Shown here piece after piece: positions 3,309 through 57,905 of a DNA stretch of 64,000 bases. Numbering within the stretch: the stretch's first letter is position 1; every line of letters starts with the position of its first letter. Source of the stretch: Alopecurus myosuroides. Lineage: Eukaryota; Streptophyta; Magnoliopsida; Poales; Poaceae. Position numbers and translations under genes: made by a program. Where the stretch lies: NCBI GenBank assembly GCA_028641055.1, contig CM054062.1, positions 271,455,092 to 271,519,091 of the forward strand, in the 5' to 3' direction. The notes beneath the pieces were generated by a model. That model was given only the letters and a program-made list of their open reading frames with translations. It was not told where the DNA came from and did not search any database.

Positions 3309-3474
3309 CCTGCGTCCAAAGGTGTTTACATCACGGGAGAAGCTTGTCGTCGGCGAGATCTACATCGACCACAAAGGAGAAAAGACGGTGGACGATTCCG
3401 GCTGGGGGCCAGAGTCGGATCACCTCGAATCCGGATCCGTCGTGACAATCGGCCGGATCAGCGTCTTCATTGGT

Positions 3475-6400
3475 ATGGTATGTACTTCCGGTTCGATCCC
3501 TGACAATTTTGGATCTGATTCTGTGTCAGGGGAGGCCACTTCTATCCAATCAGATGATGAAGAATCAGTTGGAACGACATATCCGGCGGAAGAACCCATC
3601 GCGAAGTTGGAACATCCGGAGGAACTGGCATGGACCCCGCGCGACCGGGTCAAAAGAGAGGATGATACCGAGTCTATCCTGGATCTGCTGGAAAACCGAT
3701 ATGAGGAGAATAACAGCGAAGGGGAACAGCATGAATTCGCGCCAAGCATCATACGCCGAGTCGCGGTTTATACGGCTCCCGCAACCAATATCAACCAAGA
3801 GGCCGTAACCGCGGCCGCGGCCGTGTCAGCACAAGCATTAGCCCGGCAGCAGGGGCCGGCTAACGGAAACACGGTTTTAGCCCAGGTTGACGGAGAGTCG
3901 GCATCGGTTACCAGTCAAGCGCCGGAAAACGAGCTACACGCAAACACGTTCGGATTCCTAGCAAACCGGACACCAGGAGCGGGTCCTTCCAATCCACAAC
4001 ACCCGGCCTTGTTCGACAACAATCTGATCCTAGATCCGATGGTTCTTGCCACAGTTATCACTCCGGAGAACGCGGCGGAACGAGTTAGGGATTTGGACGT
4101 AGCCCGTCGTGCATTGGAGCAGCAGAGAAGGCAAGTAGAAGCAGAAAGGCAAGGGATGGTCACACGGCAACGTGAGCTGGATGCATTGGAAACTCGGCTC
4201 CGAGAGGAAACGACTAGAATAAATCAAAGGCATCAAACTAGATTACCAGCATTGGGAGGAGTCATAAACCCGGCCGCACTATTTATCACGCCTCAGGATC
4301 AGCCGATTCCAGCGGCAAATCAAGGAACCGCCCCTCAGCCGACAACCGGAGGAGCAGAACCGGTAGATACGCAGGCCGGGTTACTTGCACCACAGACTGG
4401 AGTCACTGCAGGCAATATCGTACCACCGCCACCACCACCACCACCATCGCGTTTTCGCACACCAGCAGGTCATTACAACAATCCCATGGACAACGTGTAT
4501 GCGGCAACGCTTGCACTAAATCAAATCCCCGTGAGAGAGTCACCCCACGCAGAGGAGACCCGGCGGGCGATAGATATGCTGCGCACCGCGGTAGCGCAAC
4601 AGGTTAATTACCCGGATCACAGAAGTGGAATTCATGGGACGCCGTATGTCAGCCAACAACAAGGTAACACTGGAAACATCCAAACAAGTTCGGCACGGCG
4701 GAGGGAAGAGCAGCAGCAAATGCCGCCTCCTCCACACATCCAGGCAGTACCAGCAGCATCAGCAGCACAGGCCATCGTGGATAGTTCCAGGGCCAGGAGA
4801 GCCGTGGCCGGGTCTGCGGCACATGGGCCACCAGCGGTATCGCAGCCAGCTGTACCCCCTGCAGGATCACATGTTTCCCGAGTAAGACCAGCTTCAACCA
4901 TTCTTGCAGGGCCTAAGTGTCTTTCGGATAGCATCAGAGCTGAACCTTACCCGGAAAAGTTCAAAGAACCGGGTAAAGTGGTAAATTATGAGCCGACTAT
5001 GGATCCGGAAACATGGTTGAGCAGCTATGAGATGGCCATGTCGATTCGCAATGCGTCCGAGAATCTTCAAGCCAAGTTCATGTATCTAATGATGTCAGAA
5101 GGAGCAGCAAAGTTATGGTTCGCCAATCTACCGGAAGGATCTATTAAGTCATGGGAAGAATTGAAAACTGCATTTATCAAGCACTTTCACGGGACGTGTA
5201 GGAAGTTATTCACTATTGATGACTTAGAGCGATGTGTTCAGAAGAAGGGAGAATCGGCGCGCAGCTGGGTGCGCCGGGTTATTGAAATTCTCCATTCATC
5301 TACGGATATTCAGCCCAAGGATGCGCTGCAAGCTATGGCAAAGACCTGCAAGTACACACCCTTAGTACAAAAATTAACTCGCATGAAATCTAGTCGGAAT
5401 GCTTCGGAGGTCACAATGGGAGAATTGATGGATGCGTGCAACAAACATGCCGCAACGGACACTACGGAAGAGGAAACTGATGATAAAAAAGCAAAAGCAA
5501 ACACAAGTAGTAATGGAAGAACTGGCAACGGATCAGCATCGGGTAACAACAGCCAGAACAAGCGTCCGTTTGAAGGAGGCTCTGAGTTTGTCGCCAATAC
5601 TGAAGCTGGATCTTCCAGACCTAGGGCAGAAGGAAATTTCAATGCTGGAAATCACAATGGAGGAAACTATCAAGGGCCACCAAGGCCGGGTAATAATTGG
5701 GACATATTCAGAATGGCATGCCCGAAGCACAGCAGGAACGGTAGGCCAGCTAACCACTCCTTGGAGCAGTGCGCCGACCTACAGAGATGGAAAAATGAGG
5801 AAGTGAACAGAGCCATGCGAGGTGCAGGACGGGGAGGAGGACCGGGTCCAGGAGGAAACCCGGGCAACGGTCCACCCCCAGCCGGTAACCCAGAAGCTGG
5901 AAATCAAGGTAATAACCAAGGGGGAGCAGGAGGTTTCCAGGCTAACCCCAAACAGTTGGGTCAATATCATGTGCATACCACAGGAGGATCTAACAAGGAC
6001 AAAAAGATACTGAAGCAAGCGGTCAATTCAGTTTCTTCGGCTGTCCCGAGATACCTGAGATGGTCAGAACATGAGGTAACATGGAGCAGAAGGGACCACC
6101 CGGAAAGAGTAGAACACCCGGGAGTCTTGGCATTAGTAGTCGCACCGCAGGTAAATGGGTATGAACTGAAAAAGGTTTTGATGGATGGTGGAAGTAGCAT
6201 CAATATACTGTATTGGGAAACCTTCTTACGCATGGGCCTCAAGGAGTCTCAGCTACAGAAAATCTCAACAATTTTTCATGGGATAGTGCCGGGTCATTCA
6301 GCGTGCCCCGAGGGAAAAATCGCATTGGAGGTAGCTTTTGGGGAATCAAAGGATAACTATCGAGTTGAGTGGCTCGCTTTTGAGGTGGTCAAATTGCGCA

Positions 6401-6894
6401 GTCCTTATCACGCGTTATTCGGAAGGCCGGCTTATGCCAAATTCATGGCTAGGCCGTGTTACGTATATCTACAGCTAAAAATCCCGGGTCCCAAGAAGAC
6501 CATTACCATACATGGAAATCGAGACATAGCAGCTGAATGCGATGAAGGAGACGCAGCAATGGCCGAGCAAGCCTGTAGAAAAGAGGAACTCAAGCATTAC
6601 CGGTCTCAAGCAGACCCGGAGGATAGAACCACGTCAAAAAGATCGAGTACTGAAGACGAAAGAGCAAAGTCCAAGGCAGCACAAGATGCTAAGATGGTGG
6701 CTTTTATCAAGGATGATTCCCCCAAACAATCTGCCATAGGAGAAGAAATCGCACGGCCGCTCACAACCAGCCGCGCTATGGAGACGCCTCACCCGGGTTG
6801 GCTAGTAAATCCGGTACTCATCATGAAAAAGTCCAGCAAATGGGGAATGTGTATCGGCCACGTCAGCCCGGGACCGGTTCCCAAGAAGAACTAA
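3475..6894 (+). CDS. E2 gag-protease polyprotein with RT stub
   Basis: The frame is open from 3322, but its first ATG is at 3475. Order of parts: an acidic N-terminus; an Ala/Gln-rich coiled region (about 3790-4230); a proline run (4421-4447); a retrotransposon gag domain (about 4930-5330, with MDPETWLSSYEMAM and GSIKSWEELKTAF); an asparagine/glycine-rich segment; a non-canonical Cys/His cluster (CPKHSRNGRPANHSLEQC, about 5719-5773); and a retropepsin-like site with DGGSS in place of the usual D-T/S-G (about 6184). The last 40 residues begin like a gypsy RT (HPGWLVNPVLIMKKSSKW) but then end at a stop, so polymerase and integrase were deleted. The intact length fits recent activity. A 5' intron near 3470 is possible, since the frame lacks an early ATG. 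Confidence 0.88.
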   Translation: MVCTSGSIPDNFGSDSVSGEATSIQSDDEESVGTTYPAEEPIAKLEHPEELAWTPRDRVKREDDTESILDLLENRYEENNSEGEQHEFAPSIIRRVAVYTAPATNINQEAVTAAAAVSAQALARQQGPANGNTVLAQVDGESASVTSQAPENELHANTFGFLANRTPGAGPSNPQHPALFDNNLILDPMVLATVITPENAAERVRDLDVARRALEQQRRQVEAERQGMVTRQRELDALETRLREETTRINQRHQTRLPALGGVINPAALFITPQDQPIPAANQGTAPQPTTGGAEPVDTQAGLLAPQTGVTAGNIVPPPPPPPPSRFRTPAGHYNNPMDNVYAATLALNQIPVRESPHAEETRRAIDMLRTAVAQQVNYPDHRSGIHGTPYVSQQQGNTGNIQTSSARRREEQQQMPPPPHIQAVPAASAAQAIVDSSRARRAVAGSAAHGPPAVSQPAVPPAGSHVSRVRPASTILAGPKCLSDSIRAEPYPEKFKEPGKVVNYEPTMDPETWLSSYEMAMSIRNASENLQAKFMYLMMSEGAAKLWFANLPEGSIKSWEELKTAFIKHFHGTCRKLFTIDDLERCVQKKGESARSWVRRVIEILHSSTDIQPKDALQAMAKTCKYTPLVQKLTRMKSSRNASEVTMGELMDACNKHAATDTTEEETDDKKAKANTSSNGRTGNGSASGNNSQNKRPFEGGSEFVANTEAGSSRPRAEGNFNAGNHNGGNYQGPPRPGNNWDIFRMACPKHSRNGRPANHSLEQCADLQRWKNEEVNRAMRGAGRGGGPGPGGNPGNGPPPAGNPEAGNQGNNQGGAGGFQANPKQLGQYHVHTTGGSNKDKKILKQAVNSVSSAVPRYLRWSEHEVTWSRRDHPERVEHPGVLALVVAPQVNGYELKKVLMDGGSSINILYWETFLRMGLKESQLQKISTIFHGIVPGHSACPEGKIALEVAFGESKDNYRVEWLAFEVVKLRSPYHALFGRPAYAKFMARPCYVYLQLKIPGPKKTITIHGNRDIAAECDEGDAAMAEQACRKEELKHYRSQADPEDRTTSKRSSTEDERAKSKAAQDAKMVAFIKDDSPKQSAIGEEIARPLTTSRAMETPHPGWLVNPVLIMKKSSKWGMCIGHVSPGPVPKKN

Positions 6895-27835: not shown

Positions 27836-28890
27836 GGAAAGCAACAAAAATATGATATAACTTTATAATATTTATCTTGAATTAGGACATGATGCTTTTG
27901 AAGAGAAAATTAAAAAACATATGTAAGTTTATTTTCATAATAGTGATAGCAATGTTATTAGCATTAATTATTTGGATACCATTATTTCTAGTACCATGGA
28001 AAATTCTAAGCTTGGGGAAGCTAGTTTTTATAAACTTTTTAGTTTTCCAGCTTTAGAGGAGAAAATTTGCTCTGATGATACTTTATCTCCCATATGTGAT
28101 AAACCTAATGATTCCTGTGATATTTAAATCCTCCTACTGAAAGCATTCCTTTTAAAATACCCAAGAAAATTGTTGAACTTGTCATGGATAACCGTTATTT
28201 TGGAAATGGAACTGTCCATCCTAGTGATCATTTACACTTTATGCATGAATTATGCGAGTTATTCAAGTGTGCAGGTATCTAAATGGACCAAGTTAAGAGT
28301 AGGCTATTCCCTTTGCCACTTGAGTACAACGCAAGGGAGTGTTATAAACTACTAGATGATTCTCATCATTTGGAGTGGAAGGAACTTGAATCTCTGTTTT
28401 ACTCTAAATTTTATCCTCCTCATGAGCTACATTTAGATAGGAATTAAATTTATAATTTTTGGCCTCATGATGGAGAAAGCATTTCCCAAGCTTGGGGAAG
28501 ATTGAAAACATTAATACTCAAATGTCCTAACCATGACCTTCGTGAGGAAATAATTGTTACTAATTTTTATGCAAGGCTTTCAGGACATTGGAAGGATTAT
28601 CTAGATGCCTGTTCAGAGGGTTCTTTTTGTAGTAAGAAGGTTCAAGCTAAGTGGGATCTTCTTGATGGGATTCGAATCAATAGTGAATATTGGAATAACA
28701 ACAAAGGTAAAGATTCAAGTATAAGCTATGAGTATGATTGCATTAAGACTTTTGCTGAAATTGCTGATTTTCATGAGCTTAATGCTAACAAATAGTTGTT
28801 GGTTGGTATAGATTCTTTGCTTCTTATCTTAATATTACTAAAGGAAATTTGGACATATATCATGAACCTTTTAAAGACACTTGCATGGAA
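27836..28890 (+). pseudogene. E5 gag relic
   Basis: Frames broken by stops and shifts. Recognisable gag pieces are DNRYFGNGTVHPSDHLHF and FYSKFYPPHELHLDRN (around 28180-28445), then IYNFWPHDGESISQAWGRLK. 28502-28795 continues with ILKCPNHDLREEIIVTNFYA. E6 carries the same gag type at 41680-41900. Confidence 0.75.
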
Positions 28891-53907: not shown

Positions 53908-54326
53908 TTAGATGCTCTTTCAAACCCAGTTTCGCAGGCCGGCAGGCGCATGCGTCCAAATCGAGAAGCAGCTTCCACGCAGTCAAATTTGGTCTTCTTC
54001 ACCAGCTTTCAAAACCGCACAAGAGAGAAAGCTCGGTCTTCCCTGCAGAAAAGCAGCCCATCTTTTTCATGCCCGTTCTGTTCTGCCCAGCTCGCCGTCT
54101 CGTCGGGTAGCGTAACCGCTCTGCAAAAGAATCAGACGGTGGAGAGAAAGCAAGCGGATCCCGAGGCGCCCACCTGCTCTCCGTACGGACACCCACCCGA
54201 TGCGCGCGCGCGCACGGCTTTGCCTTGCGTGGAAAGAAAGCTCTCACCGTCTGTGCATGGAAGCATCCGGGCCGTCGGCTCAGGATAAGAACGGATGCCA
54301 GCCGTCCGTGACACTGCCACCGCCGC

Positions 54327-54334
54327 TATTTATA
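54327..54334 (+). promoter_or_regulatory. TATA box of snoRNA host gene
   Basis: tatttata sits in a GC-rich context (ccgccgctatttatactgggg), with a pyrimidine-rich stretch about 25-40 bp downstream (ttcgctctcccattcctttc) typical of a plant transcription start for a growth-related gene. It precedes exon 1 of the host gene. Confidence 0.6.
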
Positions 54335-54640
54335 CTGGGGCGCCTCGCCCTTCGCTCTCCCATTCCTTTCCCTCCTGCCCAGTTTGTCCCTGCGACTGTG
54401 AGTGTGGCAGAAGGCCAGAGCTGCGGTTTCATGCTTTGGATCTGGCCCGCTCCCCATGGCCATGGCTCCTCGCGTCTCGTGTATCGATGAGTTTTTTTGG
54501 GTGTTCTTTCCGGTCTCTACTTCGTGGCCATCTTCTTTCTGTTTTCTTCTTCTTGAACCAGCAGCGCAGCACCTGCTGTGTTCGTCCATGTAACTCGAGT
54601 TCTTGTTCGTTCGTTTTGCTTCTGCTCTTTTCATGGTTTT

Positions 54641-54705
54641 GCCGATGATGACATTGTGCTTGCTTTTCGGACCATCGTATGAACGAGTAAAGCAATTTCT
54701 GAGGC
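54641..54705 (+). ncRNA. C/D snoRNA 1a
   Basis: Box C ATGATGA at 54645-54651, box D CTGA at 54699-54702, terminal pairing GCC/GGC (54641-54643 with 54703-54705). It lies in the intron after the first 28-nt exon. A second copy is at 55068. Guide target not assigned. Confidence 0.75.
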
Positions 54706-55067
54706 GCCAGCAGTAGTAGTAGATCAGCTGAACAGCACCGCAGTTTTGTGCCACCTTTTTCTTTTCCATCTCTCTGCGATTTCCTTGCCGCTCTTGGTCG
54801 ATTCCCTTCTCTTCTGTTTGGATCTGGCCCGCTTCCATGGCCATGGCTCCTCTCGTCATGTGTTTCGATCTCAGCTTTTTCGTGTGTTCTTTCCGGTCTC
54901 TACCTTCGTGGCCATCTTGTTTCTATTTTCTTCTTGAACCAGCAGCGCAGCCCCTGCTGGGTTCGTCCATGTAACACGAGTTCTTGATTTTCCGTCGCTT
55001 CTGCTTTGCATCGATCGGATCCCTCTTTTTTTTGGGGTGCTAGCTGGTGTTCCATGGTTCCGTTCAT

Positions 55068-55137
55068 GCCAATGATGACATTGTTTGCATTTCGCTTCTC
55101 GGACCTTCTTATGAACGAGCAAAACAATTTCTGAGGC
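55068..55137 (+). ncRNA. C/D snoRNA 1b
   Basis: Box C ATGATGA 55072-55078, box D CTGA 55131-55134, pairing GCC/GGC. It shares acattgt, cggacc, tatgaacgag and caatttctgaggcgc with 1a, so it is a paralogue from the same tandem duplication. Confidence 0.75.
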
Positions 55138-55346
55138 GCGCGCCAGTAGTCCAGCGCACCGCTAGCTGTTTAATCTGGCACCTTTTTTTTTTGTTTCGTA
55201 TCTCTCTGTGATTTTCTTGCGGGAGCCAATGATCCAGTACGTACACGCTGGTTACTTTAACCCACAGATCTCTGCAAGCAGCGATCGTACTACGCGTAAA
55301 TTGAGGCTAGCTATTGCTCTTCCTGCTGCGTTTTTTAATTCCTGGT

Positions 55347-55470
55347 GTGCCGATGATGATGCGTTCAGCCGTTCAGGGACTGATAATTCCATCGTGTAAG
55401 GTCCCGCGGCATTCTGTATGGATACCCCGCCCCTCCATGTGATGCCAAACTTGTGAACCACCTGAGGCAC
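55347..55470 (+). ncRNA. Long C/D snoRNA 2a with internal stem
   Basis: Box C ATGATGA 55353-55359 and box D CTGA 55462-55465, closed by GTGCC/GGCAC (55347-55351 with 55466-55470). GGGAC...GTCCC (55376-55380 with about 55401-55405) can form an internal hairpin and is kept in copy 2b. The 17 nt before box D (ccaaacttgtgaaccac) are identical in both copies, as expected of a guide. About 124 nt, long for this class. Confidence 0.7.
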
Positions 55471-55563
55471 GTACTATTTCTCCGGTTTCTGAACTGTGTT
55501 TTTGCATCCGTAGATTGTTGATCTATGGATATGTCAGATTTGTGTTCTTTGTTTCTGTTTCGA

Positions 55564-55654
55564 TCGGCCGATGATGAGACATAAAAGCTTTTGAGATGTG
55601 CTGCGCACAGATGACCTGAGCTAACTAATTTCTTCAAAGTATCTGAGATGCCGA
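55564..55654 (+). ncRNA. C/D snoRNA 3a (18S guide)
   Basis: Box C ATGATGA 55571-55577, box D CTGA 55643-55646, flanked by tcggcc and gatgccga (one base off perfect pairing). It has the same guide core as 3b except for its 5' edge (actaatttcttcaaagtat). Confidence 0.82.
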
Positions 55655-55764
55655 TTTCCGAGATGTTACGCCACAGATCTCTGCAAGCAGCGATCGTACT
55701 ACTACGCGTGTTGAGGCTATATATAGCTCTTGTTCTTCCTGCTGCGTTTTTTAATTAGCGATTT

Positions 55765-55880
55765 GCCGATGATGATGGGTTCAGGGGACTGATAATTCTA
55801 TCGTGTAAGGTCCCGAGGCATTCTGTATGGATACCTTGAAAAGTTCCATGTGACGCCAAACTTGTGAACCACCTGAGACA
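55765..55880 (+). ncRNA. Long C/D snoRNA 2b
   Basis: Copy of 2a: box C ATGATGA 55769-55775, box D CTGA 55873-55876, with internal GGGAC...GTCCC and identical guide ccaaacttgtgaaccac. The outer stem is weaker than in 2a (gacac in place of ggcac). Confidence 0.68.
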
Positions 55881-56009
55881 CTATTTCTCTAGATATATCA
55901 CATCTGTAAGTAATCTGTTGTCGACGGGTTCTTAGCTCTGTTTTTTTTTTGCATCCGTAGATTATTAATCTACGAATAGTTTATACGATTTGTGTTTTTC
56001 GATTTTGTT

Positions 56010-56100
56010 TCGGCCGATGATGAGACATAACAGCTTTTGAGATGTGCCTCGCACAGATGACATGGGCTAATTAATTTCTTCAAAGTATCTGAGAGGCCGA
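56010..56100 (+). ncRNA. C/D snoRNA 3b (18S guide)
   Basis: Box C ATGATGA 56017-56023, box D CTGA 56089-56092, perfect terminal stem TCGGCC/GGCCGA (56010-56015 with 56095-56100). Bases 56072-56087 (taatttcttcaaagta) are complementary over 16 nt to plant 18S rRNA uactuugaagaaauua, as I recall that rRNA. By the box D plus five rule the methylated base would be the first U of the UUU in uacUuugaag. Confidence 0.88.
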
Positions 56101-56194
56101 TTTCCATGTGATGTCAATCTATAAATATTCTGTTTTCATTTTTTTTGAAAATGATATTCCGTTTTCGTATTGTGTTTTCCGAATTAATTTATTA

Positions 56195-56286
56195 TCGGCC
56201 GATGACGAGACATGTAACAGCTTTTGAGATGTGCTGCGCACAAATGACATGGCTAATTAATTTCTTCAAAGTATCTGAGAGGCCGA
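56195..56286 (+). ncRNA. C/D snoRNA 3c (18S guide)
   Basis: Third copy: box C variant ATGACGA 56202-56208, box D CTGA 56275-56278, stem TCGGCC/GGCCGA (56195-56200 with 56281-56286). The guide is identical to 3b. The box C change (T to C) may weaken protein binding. Confidence 0.8.
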
Positions 56287-56490
56287 TCACCCTATATTTC
56301 GTGTTAGCCGATTTTTTTTTTTTGGAGGGATGGTGCTAGCAGATCTGAGGCGGCTGATACGGGAGACGTATAACCCGCAGTAGTTCTGGTTAGCTGTACT
56401 GCTGTTCTATAGCTAGCTCGGCCCATTATGTGCTGAAGTTTTTATTGCTCTTGTTATTCCTGAGTCTTTTTTCTCTGTTGAAAGCAAGAT

Positions 56491-56554
56491 TTCTATGATG
56501 AATTGTCCTTAGCGGTTTGATACAATGTGAAAATGCGATGACAATTCTGAGACA
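56491..56554 (+). ncRNA. C/D snoRNA 4 (possible 25S guide)
   Basis: Box C ATGATGA 56495-56501, a D'-like TTGA 56517-56520, C'-like ATGACA and box D CTGA 56547-56550. Bases 56506-56515 (tccttagcgg), one nt before the D' box, are complementary to 25S rRNA ccgcuaagga as I recall it. The outer stem is weak. Confidence 0.6.
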
Positions 56555-56825
56555 TTGAGTGTTCTGTATGTTTTCCTTCCGCTGCACATACAAAATAGGC
56601 AAGTGCTCTGCTCTAACGTGATTGAACTTATCTGCTACTGTACTAGCGAGCTTGGAGGCTGGCAGCATTTTTTTTTTGAAGAAGTCTTATTTCTTTGGTG
56701 CTTTAATTGAGTGTACAACCAAAACATATTCTGTGTAGACAACTTTCTGAAACCCAGTCTCTGCTCTTTACAAGTGCTAACTTAGCAAGTTCCCCATCCA
56801 GTTTTGTTATGTTAACCAAAACATA

Positions 56826-56920
56826 TCCGATGATGCTATGTTAACCAGACTGTCGAGCCATGGACAGGTCTGAATCTATCCATTCGGCCATGGACAATAC
56901 CAGTTATTGCACTGAGGCCA
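56826..56920 (+). ncRNA. C/D-like snoRNA candidate 5a
   Basis: Box C variant ATGATGC 56830-56836 and box D CTGA 56912-56915 followed by ggcca. An internal CTGA lies near 56870. The 5' stem is degraded relative to 5b. It shares ctatccattcggcc-like words with 5b and with 57440-57488. Confidence 0.5.
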
Positions 56921-57200
56921 ACTCTACATTTTTTTCCCCGCTTCCATCAGATTTTAACATTCGAATTTGTAGTTCAATGCACTTTCGAAATGGAACTTTC
57001 ATAGTTTTCAATGTGTTAAAGGACTGCAAGATTATCTGAGGAACTTCCTTAATTTCCATCACCTGATGCGTTGTTTTTACTGCTTCATGCACCCTCATGG
57101 GTTCCTTTGAATGCTACTCTGCTCTTGGGTGTTCAAATTAATTCTGAATTTGCATCCCTGGATTCATCTTCTCTTAGGACAAATGATTTTCCCTTGAAAT

Positions 57201-57298
57201 GGCCGATGATGCTAAACCACACAGTTCAAAATTGAGCAGATGCATGGAACCTATCCATGCGTTTGGCTATGAAATTTGCATGGTTTTGCTGAGGCCAA
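57201..57298 (+). ncRNA. C/D-like snoRNA candidate 5b
   Basis: Box C variant ATGATGC 57207-57213, box D CTGA 57290-57293, perfect stem TGGCC/GGCCA (57201-57205 with 57294-57298). Target not assigned. A further possible relative ends at CTGA 57482-57485 but lacks a clear box C. Confidence 0.62.
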
Positions 57299-57905
57299 GG
57301 TCACAATATTTTCTTCAGAATTTGATCTGCAATGGGCATTCTGAGATGACAGTAGAGATAATTTCTGTTGAAGTACGTGTCCTTCTGTTACACCTTTGGG
57401 AGTGCTGGTGGTGTGAAAAAAAAGGTTATGAGTTTGAACCGATGGATTGGTCCATTCGGCCGTGAAGACGTGCTGTGTTTACTGAGGCGAAGTTTTTCTT
57501 TTTGTTTTGAAGTGCTTGTTGTATTTTCTGCTCTTAGTTTCCTAACCTGCACTTGTTTGGTCGTCTATGGTTTAGTGATGATGAAATAGTTGAGATTTGA
57601 ACAAAGGGATCTACCCATTATTTGAAATGTAAAGAATTTCAATACTAGTTTTTGCATGAACAGTAACAGAGTGCTTGCACTATTTTGCAGAAAAAAGTCT
57701 TCGTTTATTGGGAATGCGTGTGGCAAGATCCCTGGAGAACATCGCTCCTGGAAAGCAGGGAAGAGCCGATGGACAACACAGGATTAGCCTTTTAACTGGG
57801 AATTGTCTAGTGTTGTGATAGAACCTGTATTCAACGCTGCTGTAAACAACCCTACATGTATTTTCTTGTAATTCTTCAGTCTTCTTCTTGATGAATATAA
57901 ACCAC

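What the first reader, a model, noticed from the sequence alone, without database searches (positions are those of the whole stretch)
54360..57905. Host gene with a cluster of intronic C/D snoRNAs built by tandem duplication
At least ten units with box C and box D, most with paired ends, lie in one 3.5-kb plus-strand region between a TATA box and a last exon. The array grew by duplicating whole modules: 54434-54817 against 54818-55220, and 55254-55668 against 55669-56100, with a third partial copy to 56286. Copies keep boxes, stems and guides while the spacers drift, which suggests selection on the RNAs.
Basis: partly seen in the sequence, partly recalled or inferred. Interest (0 to 1): 0.9.

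Follow-up and report, generated by a model that had tools for sequence, protein, structure and literature searches.

The report
Tandem-grown plant box C/D snoRNA array
A 3.5-kb stretch of a grass chromosome carries about ten small RNA genes of the kind that guide chemical marks on the ribosome, multiplied by local duplication; the kind is ordinary for cereals, but one set aims at a spot on the ribosomal RNA where no such mark was mapped in the dicot plants checked.

Summary
Ten plus-strand units with box C and box D lie between 54641 and 57296: a x2, b x2, c x3, d, e1, e2. A strict scan finds six on plus and none on minus; random sequences average 0.72. The module duplications are real. Units change 2.7-4.3 times less than spacers in three of four comparisons; the fourth shows no difference. 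The own genome holds a 93% inverted copy 0.6 Mb away and a more diverged array 65 kb downstream with other copy numbers. Unit d is a distant snoZ165. Unit c pairs over 17 nt with 18S rRNA and points at U753, absent from the dicot methylation tables I read. Family b has a conserved antisense without an rRNA match. "Host gene with intronic snoRNAs" is not supported: no good 5' splice site where 4-6 are expected, and the ends of a single large intron are not kept downstream. A non-coding polycistronic precursor fits better. Tandem growth of snoRNA genes is known in rice and maize: a new member of a known kind. No RNA data could be tested.

The parts
53945..54355 (+). putative promoter with TATA box CTATTTATA at 54326-54334
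   Evidence: aligned with the array 65 kb downstream, mostly in 87-100% identical 24-nt windows, with a gap near 54073-54092; TATA present in all three arrays. Against: similarity to the inverted copy starts only at 54235. One AGCCCA motif (site II-like, recalled) 272 nt upstream of the TATA here, 248 downstream array, none within 450 nt in the inverted copy
54434..54616 (+). conserved element x, copy 1 (function unknown)
   Evidence: 10% substitutions against 35% in spacers between the tandem copies, but 4.7% against 3.4% to the inverted copy; also at two sites elsewhere without intact snoRNAs
54641..54706 (+). C/D unit a1 (box C 54645-54651, box D 54699-54702)
54818..54997 (+). conserved element x, copy 2
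55068..55138 (+). C/D unit a2 (box C from 55072, box D to 55134)
   Evidence: its counterpart in the inverted copy is split by a 5.2-kb insertion directly behind box C
55348..55470 (+). C/D unit b1 (box C from 55353, box D to 55465; terminal stem GTGCC/GGCAC)
55499..55531 (+). stable hairpin between b1 and c1 (function unknown)
   Evidence: z -4.8
55565..55656 (+). C/D unit c1 (box C 55571-55577, box D 55643-55646), antisense to 18S rRNA
   Evidence: 17 consecutive Watson-Crick pairs to 18S 750-766, D+5 nucleotide U753; 0 of 8000 shuffled guides score as high
55764..55881 (+). C/D unit b2 (box C 55769-55775, box D 55873-55876), terminal stem weakened
55946..55978 (+). stable hairpin between b2 and c2
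   Evidence: z -5.7
56011..56102 (+). C/D unit c2 (box C from 56017, box D to 56092), antisense to 18S rRNA
56196..56288 (+). C/D unit c3 (box C from 56202, one mismatch; box D to 56278), antisense to 18S rRNA
56487..56556 (+). C/D unit d, distant relative of plant snoZ165
   Evidence: RF00310, 43.6 bits, E 4.4e-6, below the family's gathering score of 90; 10-bp antisense to 25S, D'+5 nucleotide C1268, reached by 230 of 4000 shuffled guides
56827..56919 (+). C/D unit e1 (box C ATGATGC, one mismatch; box D 56912-56915)
   Evidence: core kept in 4 of 4 copies found, including a distant locus 1.9 Mb away; box D lost in the downstream array
57202..57296 (+). C/D unit e2 (box C ATGATGC, one mismatch) with a 12-pair hairpin between the guides
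   Evidence: 71 of 72 hairpin cells paired in 6 copies
57434..57665 (+). two degenerate unit-like stretches without a full pair of boxes
57691..57905 (+).
   Evidence: frame-breaking indels against the downstream array; AATATAAA at 57894 (sequence)

Best explanation
This is a functional cluster of about ten box C/D snoRNA genes of five or six families, most likely made from one non-coding polycistronic RNA polymerase II transcript that starts behind the TATA box at 54326 and ends near 57905. Shown here by sequence: boxes, end stems of most units, duplication history, lower change in the units than in the spacers in most comparisons, and two more arrays in the same genome with changed copy numbers. 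Inferred: expression; assembly of each unit with 15.5K, NOP56, NOP58 and fibrillarin; trimming of the ends; and guide action. The c family is predicted to guide 2'-O-methylation of 18S U753; d perhaps 25S C1268; b (and perhaps a and e2) act on an unknown target.
For: Units above chance on one strand. Rfam snoZ165 similarity of d here and in both sister arrays. Substitutions in units against spacers: 8.8% vs 25.8% (p 2e-4) and 13.2% vs 35.3% (p 0.001) between tandem copies, 1.2% vs 5.3% (p 2e-5) in the larger piece of the inverted copy, and 7 of 131 vs 81 of 281 for d and the e1 core against the downstream array (p 6e-9). The c antisense with correct D spacing is kept in 8 of 9 copies and that of b, with single changes in two, in 8 of 8; 0 of 8000 shuffled guides match rRNA as well as c1. 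Promoter conserved in the downstream array. No 5' splice sites above 2.5 bits. No Pfam match at E 0.01 for 6 ORFs tested from the array of the 36 ORFs of at least 50 aa listed.
Against: No RNA evidence could be obtained. The smaller piece of the inverted copy shows no difference between units and spacers (3.4% each), and that copy shares the promoter only from 54235 on. Of 21 guide candidates only c beats shuffled guides clearly; d is at 0.05-0.06, e1 at 0.08-0.10. Only one Rfam family is seen, below its cut-off. e1 has lost box D in the downstream array and the e2 box C is further changed in the inverted copy. Unit borders were drawn knowing the conservation. The splice-site matrices and the rRNA sequences are recalled.
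Confidence: 0.72

Rival explanations
1. Spliced non-coding host gene (UHG/GAS5-like) with the snoRNAs in one or several introns.
For: A fair 3' splice site at 57691 (4.1 bits) and a weak 5' one at 54398 (ACT|GTGAGT, 0.8 bits, also in the 93% copy) would enclose all units in one intron. Intronic snoRNA gene clusters exist in rice (PMC8351944, passage).
Against: No 5' site above 2.5 bits in 3331 nt (expected 6.0 from the window, 3.9 from shuffles; 2.8% of shuffles have none) and none in the 93% copy; the downstream array has 3 in 4901 nt. Neither end of the large intron is kept in the downstream array.
Confidence: 0.22
2. Decaying or non-expressed duplicates: a once active cluster whose copies are now mostly pseudogenes.
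For: Relics without intact units exist elsewhere; the b2 stem, e1 box D in the downstream array and a2 in the inverted copy are damaged; the smaller piece of the inverted copy shows no constraint.
Against: Units change less than spacers between tandem copies and in the other two array comparisons; the c and b antisenses are nearly invariant.
Confidence: 0.05
3. Chance C/D-like motifs in a tandem repeat without RNA function.
For: Duplication multiplies any chance motif.
Against: Several unlike families carry the boxes on one strand; 17-nt 18S antisense next to box D; spacers drift faster.
Confidence: 0.01

Closest known systems
Plant polycistronic box C/D snoRNA clusters (Arabidopsis, rice)
   Same: several unlike C/D units in one short stretch; polycistronic precursors are called the plant standard (PMC5122169, section 3)
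   Different: most families here could not be named; the array grew by two module duplications and has two sister arrays
Tandemly expanded snoRNA genes of rice and maize (e.g. maize Zm-19)
   Same: tandem copies of C/D units with varying numbers; PMC6172812 (passages) says that half of the rice snoRNA families expanded by tandem duplication
   Different: here modules of up to two unlike units are duplicated; Zm-19 is one intronic unit repeated five times
Rfam RF00310 snoZ165
   Same: unit d: boxes and the CCUUAGCGG antisense
   Different: lacks 22 nt of the model's middle; scores 43.6 against a gathering score of 90
Intronic snoRNA host genes (UHG, GAS5; recalled)
   Same: many C/D units in one presumed non-coding transcript
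   Different: no recognisable set of 5' splice sites

Membership tests
box C/D snoRNA | box C RUGAUGA and box D CUGA at 50-140 nt | tested here: met
   10 units: box C perfect in 7, one mismatch in c3, e1 and e2; CTGA in all 10
box C/D snoRNA | terminal stem | tested here: met
   at least 4 pairs in 6 of 10; c1 interrupted, b2 weakened, d and e1 weak
box C/D snoRNA | antisense to rRNA or snRNA next to D or D' | tested here: inconclusive
   clear for c (17 nt), marginal for d, not significant for the rest of 21 candidates
box C/D snoRNA | stable RNA bound by fibrillarin | not testable with these tools
   no RNA or protein-binding data
plant polycistronic snoRNA cluster | several units, one promoter, no introns needed | tested here: inconclusive
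   one promoter region conserved in the downstream array, 5' splice sites lacking; transcript not seen
intronic snoRNA host gene | exons with splice sites around the units | tested here: not met
   no 5' site above 2.5 bits; putative outer sites not conserved; matrices recalled, so not a proof
snoZ165 (RF00310) | score at or above the family's gathering score | tested here: not met
   43.6 against 90, E 4.4e-6: a relative, not a filed member

The most novel reading that the evidence does not exclude
The array supplies grass-specific guides: the c family, in eight guide-bearing copies in three arrays, directs a 2'-O-methylation (or acts as a folding chaperone) at 18S U753 in expansion segment 6, a site absent from the Arabidopsis, tomato and tobacco maps, and the b family serves a non-rRNA target with a nearly invariant 15-nt antisense.
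Probability: 0.3. Interest if true: 0.55.

Novelty: new member of a known kind. Interest (0 to 1): 0.38.

Why it matters
Three arrays in one genome, at different stages of duplication and decay, show snoRNA gene birth and death with an internal yardstick (the spacers). If 18S U753 is methylated in wheat relatives it would be a ribosome mark not mapped in dicots, with its guide known beforehand; [quoted passage not shown]

Tried and rejected
Rfam at gathering cut-off found nothing in the array. Weak Rfam matches of unit a (snoR60 25.4 bits, snoR30 22.7, SNORD34 22.0, and SNORD34 30.1 against 38 for the downstream copy) were not accepted. Eukaryotic rRNA in public contigs: no viral contig hit; a first genome-contig pattern found none, a second found 4 prokaryote-bin contigs, which were looked at only for the c target motif, without a match. 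The own genome gave only two diverged 18S fragments, and these do not show the c target motif, so the target site was not confirmed in this species: the 18S, 25S and 5.8S used are recalled Arabidopsis-type sequences. Their numbering fitted the published Arabidopsis Nm positions in 10 of 10 overlapping site groups for 18S (34 of 35 sites, A1758 not tested) and in 17 of 23 for 25S, with shifts of 0, -2 or +1; 6 groups fitted none, as expected where the shift changes or the recalled 3' end is missing. Recalled U1, U4, U5, U2 and U6 gave no convincing target for b, a or e2; an 11-nt match of e2 to 18S 891-901 lies 13 nt from box D and its match next to D is at p 0.14. A 5.8S match of a2 (14 positions, one mismatch, p 0.09), an 18S match of a1 (9 bp, p 0.42) and a 25S match of the uncounted 57434-57488 stretch (p 0.06) were not accepted. 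Element x does not fold better than shuffles. Two papers on rice snoRNA clusters were not held. Searches for 'snoZ165' with snoRNA and for U753 with snoRNA found 0 papers.
Full report
The window lies in a 3.57-Gb genome at C6:271455092-271519091.

Observation. Between 54641 and 57296, on the plus strand, ten units carry a box C and a CTGA box D: a1, a2, b1, c1, b2, c2, c3, d, e1, e2. Box C is perfect in seven and has one mismatch in c3, e1 and e2. The strict scan (at most one mismatch, four stem pairs) finds six on plus (a1, a2, b1, c2, c3, e2) and none on minus; with three stem pairs it is six and one. 200 first-order random sequences average 0.72 with a maximum of 4, and 32 other chunk-strands of the window hold at most 2. 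The other four were added by reading: c1 (one stem mismatch), b2 (one stem pair lost), d (Rfam similarity) and e1 (weak stem). Two more stretches (57434-57488, 57565-57665) lack a full pair of boxes and are not counted. The module duplications are as described.

Family identity. Over the whole window, Rfam at gathering scores reports nothing in the array. With relaxed thresholds the only convincing match is snoZ165 to unit d (43.6 bits, E 4.4e-6, gathering score 90), seen also in both sister arrays (43.6 and 39.1 bits). Rfam covers only part of the described rice snoRNAs (recalled), so this is no proof of novelty. e1 and e2 may be related to each other.

Sister arrays. The own genome holds an inverted copy at C6:272.09-272.10 Mb, 93% identical from 54235 through the 3' flank to 58300, and a diverged array at C6:271.57-271.58 Mb, 65 kb downstream. 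The downstream array has one a, four b, two c plus one c that lost its 18S antisense, one d, one e1 without box D, and three or four e2. The a-module duplication is therefore found only in the window array and its inverted copy. The inverted copy carries a 5.2-kb insertion with identical 164-nt ends directly behind the box C of a2, so that unit is probably dead there. A shorter relic 1.9 Mb away keeps a clean e1 (GATGATGA...CTGAGGC) and a degenerate e2; two further sites keep element x without intact units.

Selection. Between the tandem modules, units differ at 8.8% and 13.2% of sites, spacers at 25.8% and 35.3% (p 2e-4 and 0.001). Against the inverted copy, units differ at 1.2% and spacers at 5.3% in the larger piece (p 2e-5), but both at 3.4% in the smaller one, which holds a1 and the start of a2. 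Against the downstream array, d and the e1 core differ at 7 of 131 sites and spacers at 81 of 281 (p 6e-9). Unit borders were drawn knowing the conservation, so these p-values are somewhat flattering. The e2 hairpin is paired in 71 of 72 cells of six copies, with one break, but 164 of 500 shuffles do as well, so this is no proof of covariation. In unit a the D-side antisense and in a and b the D'-side antisense vary between copies.

Targets. I used recalled Arabidopsis-type rRNAs. For 18S, 10 of 10 overlapping site groups (34 of 35 sites) fit the published methylation positions with shift 0; for 25S, 17 of 23 groups fit with a shift of 0, -2 or +1 and 6 fit none (positions from Table 1 of PMC8053127, section 12 read). 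Of 21 candidate guides, only c is clear: c1 has 17 consecutive pairs with 18S TACTTTGAAGAAATTAG, starting one nucleotide from box D, and the D+5 nucleotide is U753; c2 and c3 have 16 plus one G-U. None of 8000 shuffled c1 guides scores as high. Eight of nine c copies keep the antisense core. d has 10 pairs at D' to 25S C1268 (230 of 4000 shuffles as good). e1 has 9-10 pairs at a degenerate D' (CTGT) to 18S G1313 (327 of 4000 shuffles as good), kept in four of four copies found. The others are not significant. None of U753, C1268 or G1313 is among the sites in Table 1 of PMC8053127 or Table 2 of PMC11542601 (section 6 read; Arabidopsis, tomato and tobacco, with conserved sites of other species). 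PMC8351944 (section 10) places pseudouridines 761/762 in expansion segment 6, next to U753. [quoted passage not shown] its supplementary tables could not be opened. The b antisense (AAACTTGTGAACCAC) is identical in seven of eight copies and has one change in the eighth; it has no match of note in the recalled rRNAs or in U1, U2, U4, U5 and U6: an orphan for now.

Transcript form. The TATA box and about 400 nt upstream are conserved in the downstream array; in the inverted copy only about 90 nt upstream of the TATA are shared. In 54360-57690 there is no 5' splice-site-like sequence above 2.5 bits (window background 6.0, Poisson P 0.0025; 500 dinucleotide shuffles 3.9, 2.8% with none), and none in the inverted copy; the downstream array has three in 4901 nt. 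The outer sites of a single-intron model are weak (0.8 bits at 54398) or fair (4.1 bits at 57691), and neither is kept downstream. The 57691-57905 stretch has frame-breaking indels between arrays, and six ORFs tested from the array match no Pfam family. A polycistronic, unspliced precursor, called the plant standard in PMC5122169 (section 3), is therefore my first choice, and a single-intron host gene the main rival.

Novelty. PMC6172812 (passages) states that half of the rice snoRNA families grew by tandem duplication, that rice snoRNA clusters lie in introns and intergenic regions, that maize has intronic, intergenic and UTR clusters, and that many maize snoRNAs have no predicted target. The array is a new member of that kind. 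What is worth following is the predicted 18S U753 site and the conserved orphan b.

Noticed in passing
window 54434-54616 and 54818-54997: Element x: about 180 nt, conserved between module copies almost like the snoRNAs, and 87-88% identical at two sites elsewhere (C6:166.3 Mb, C4:90.1 Mb) where the snoRNAs are not intact. It does not fold better than shuffles; an ORF across it has no Pfam match.
   Followed up: partly
window 55499-55531 and 55946-55978: A short hairpin (8-11 pairs, z about -5) between b and c units in both modules; it could be a processing signal.
   Followed up: partly
L039 (C6:272.09-272.10 Mb): 5.2-kb insertion with identical 164-nt ends directly behind the a2 box C of the inverted array; probably a young LTR element.
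   Followed up: partly
window 28435-28539 (minus): Rfam snoR71 just at its cut-off (40.1 against 40), but the box D position is deleted in the alignment; probably chance or a relic.
   Followed up: yes
L018 3151-3252 (= L041 6151-6252): A c-like unit whose 18S antisense was lost while its first half is kept: guide loss after duplication.
   Followed up: partly
window 3322-6894 (plus): 1190-aa ORF with a retrotransposon gag domain (PF03732).
   Followed up: no
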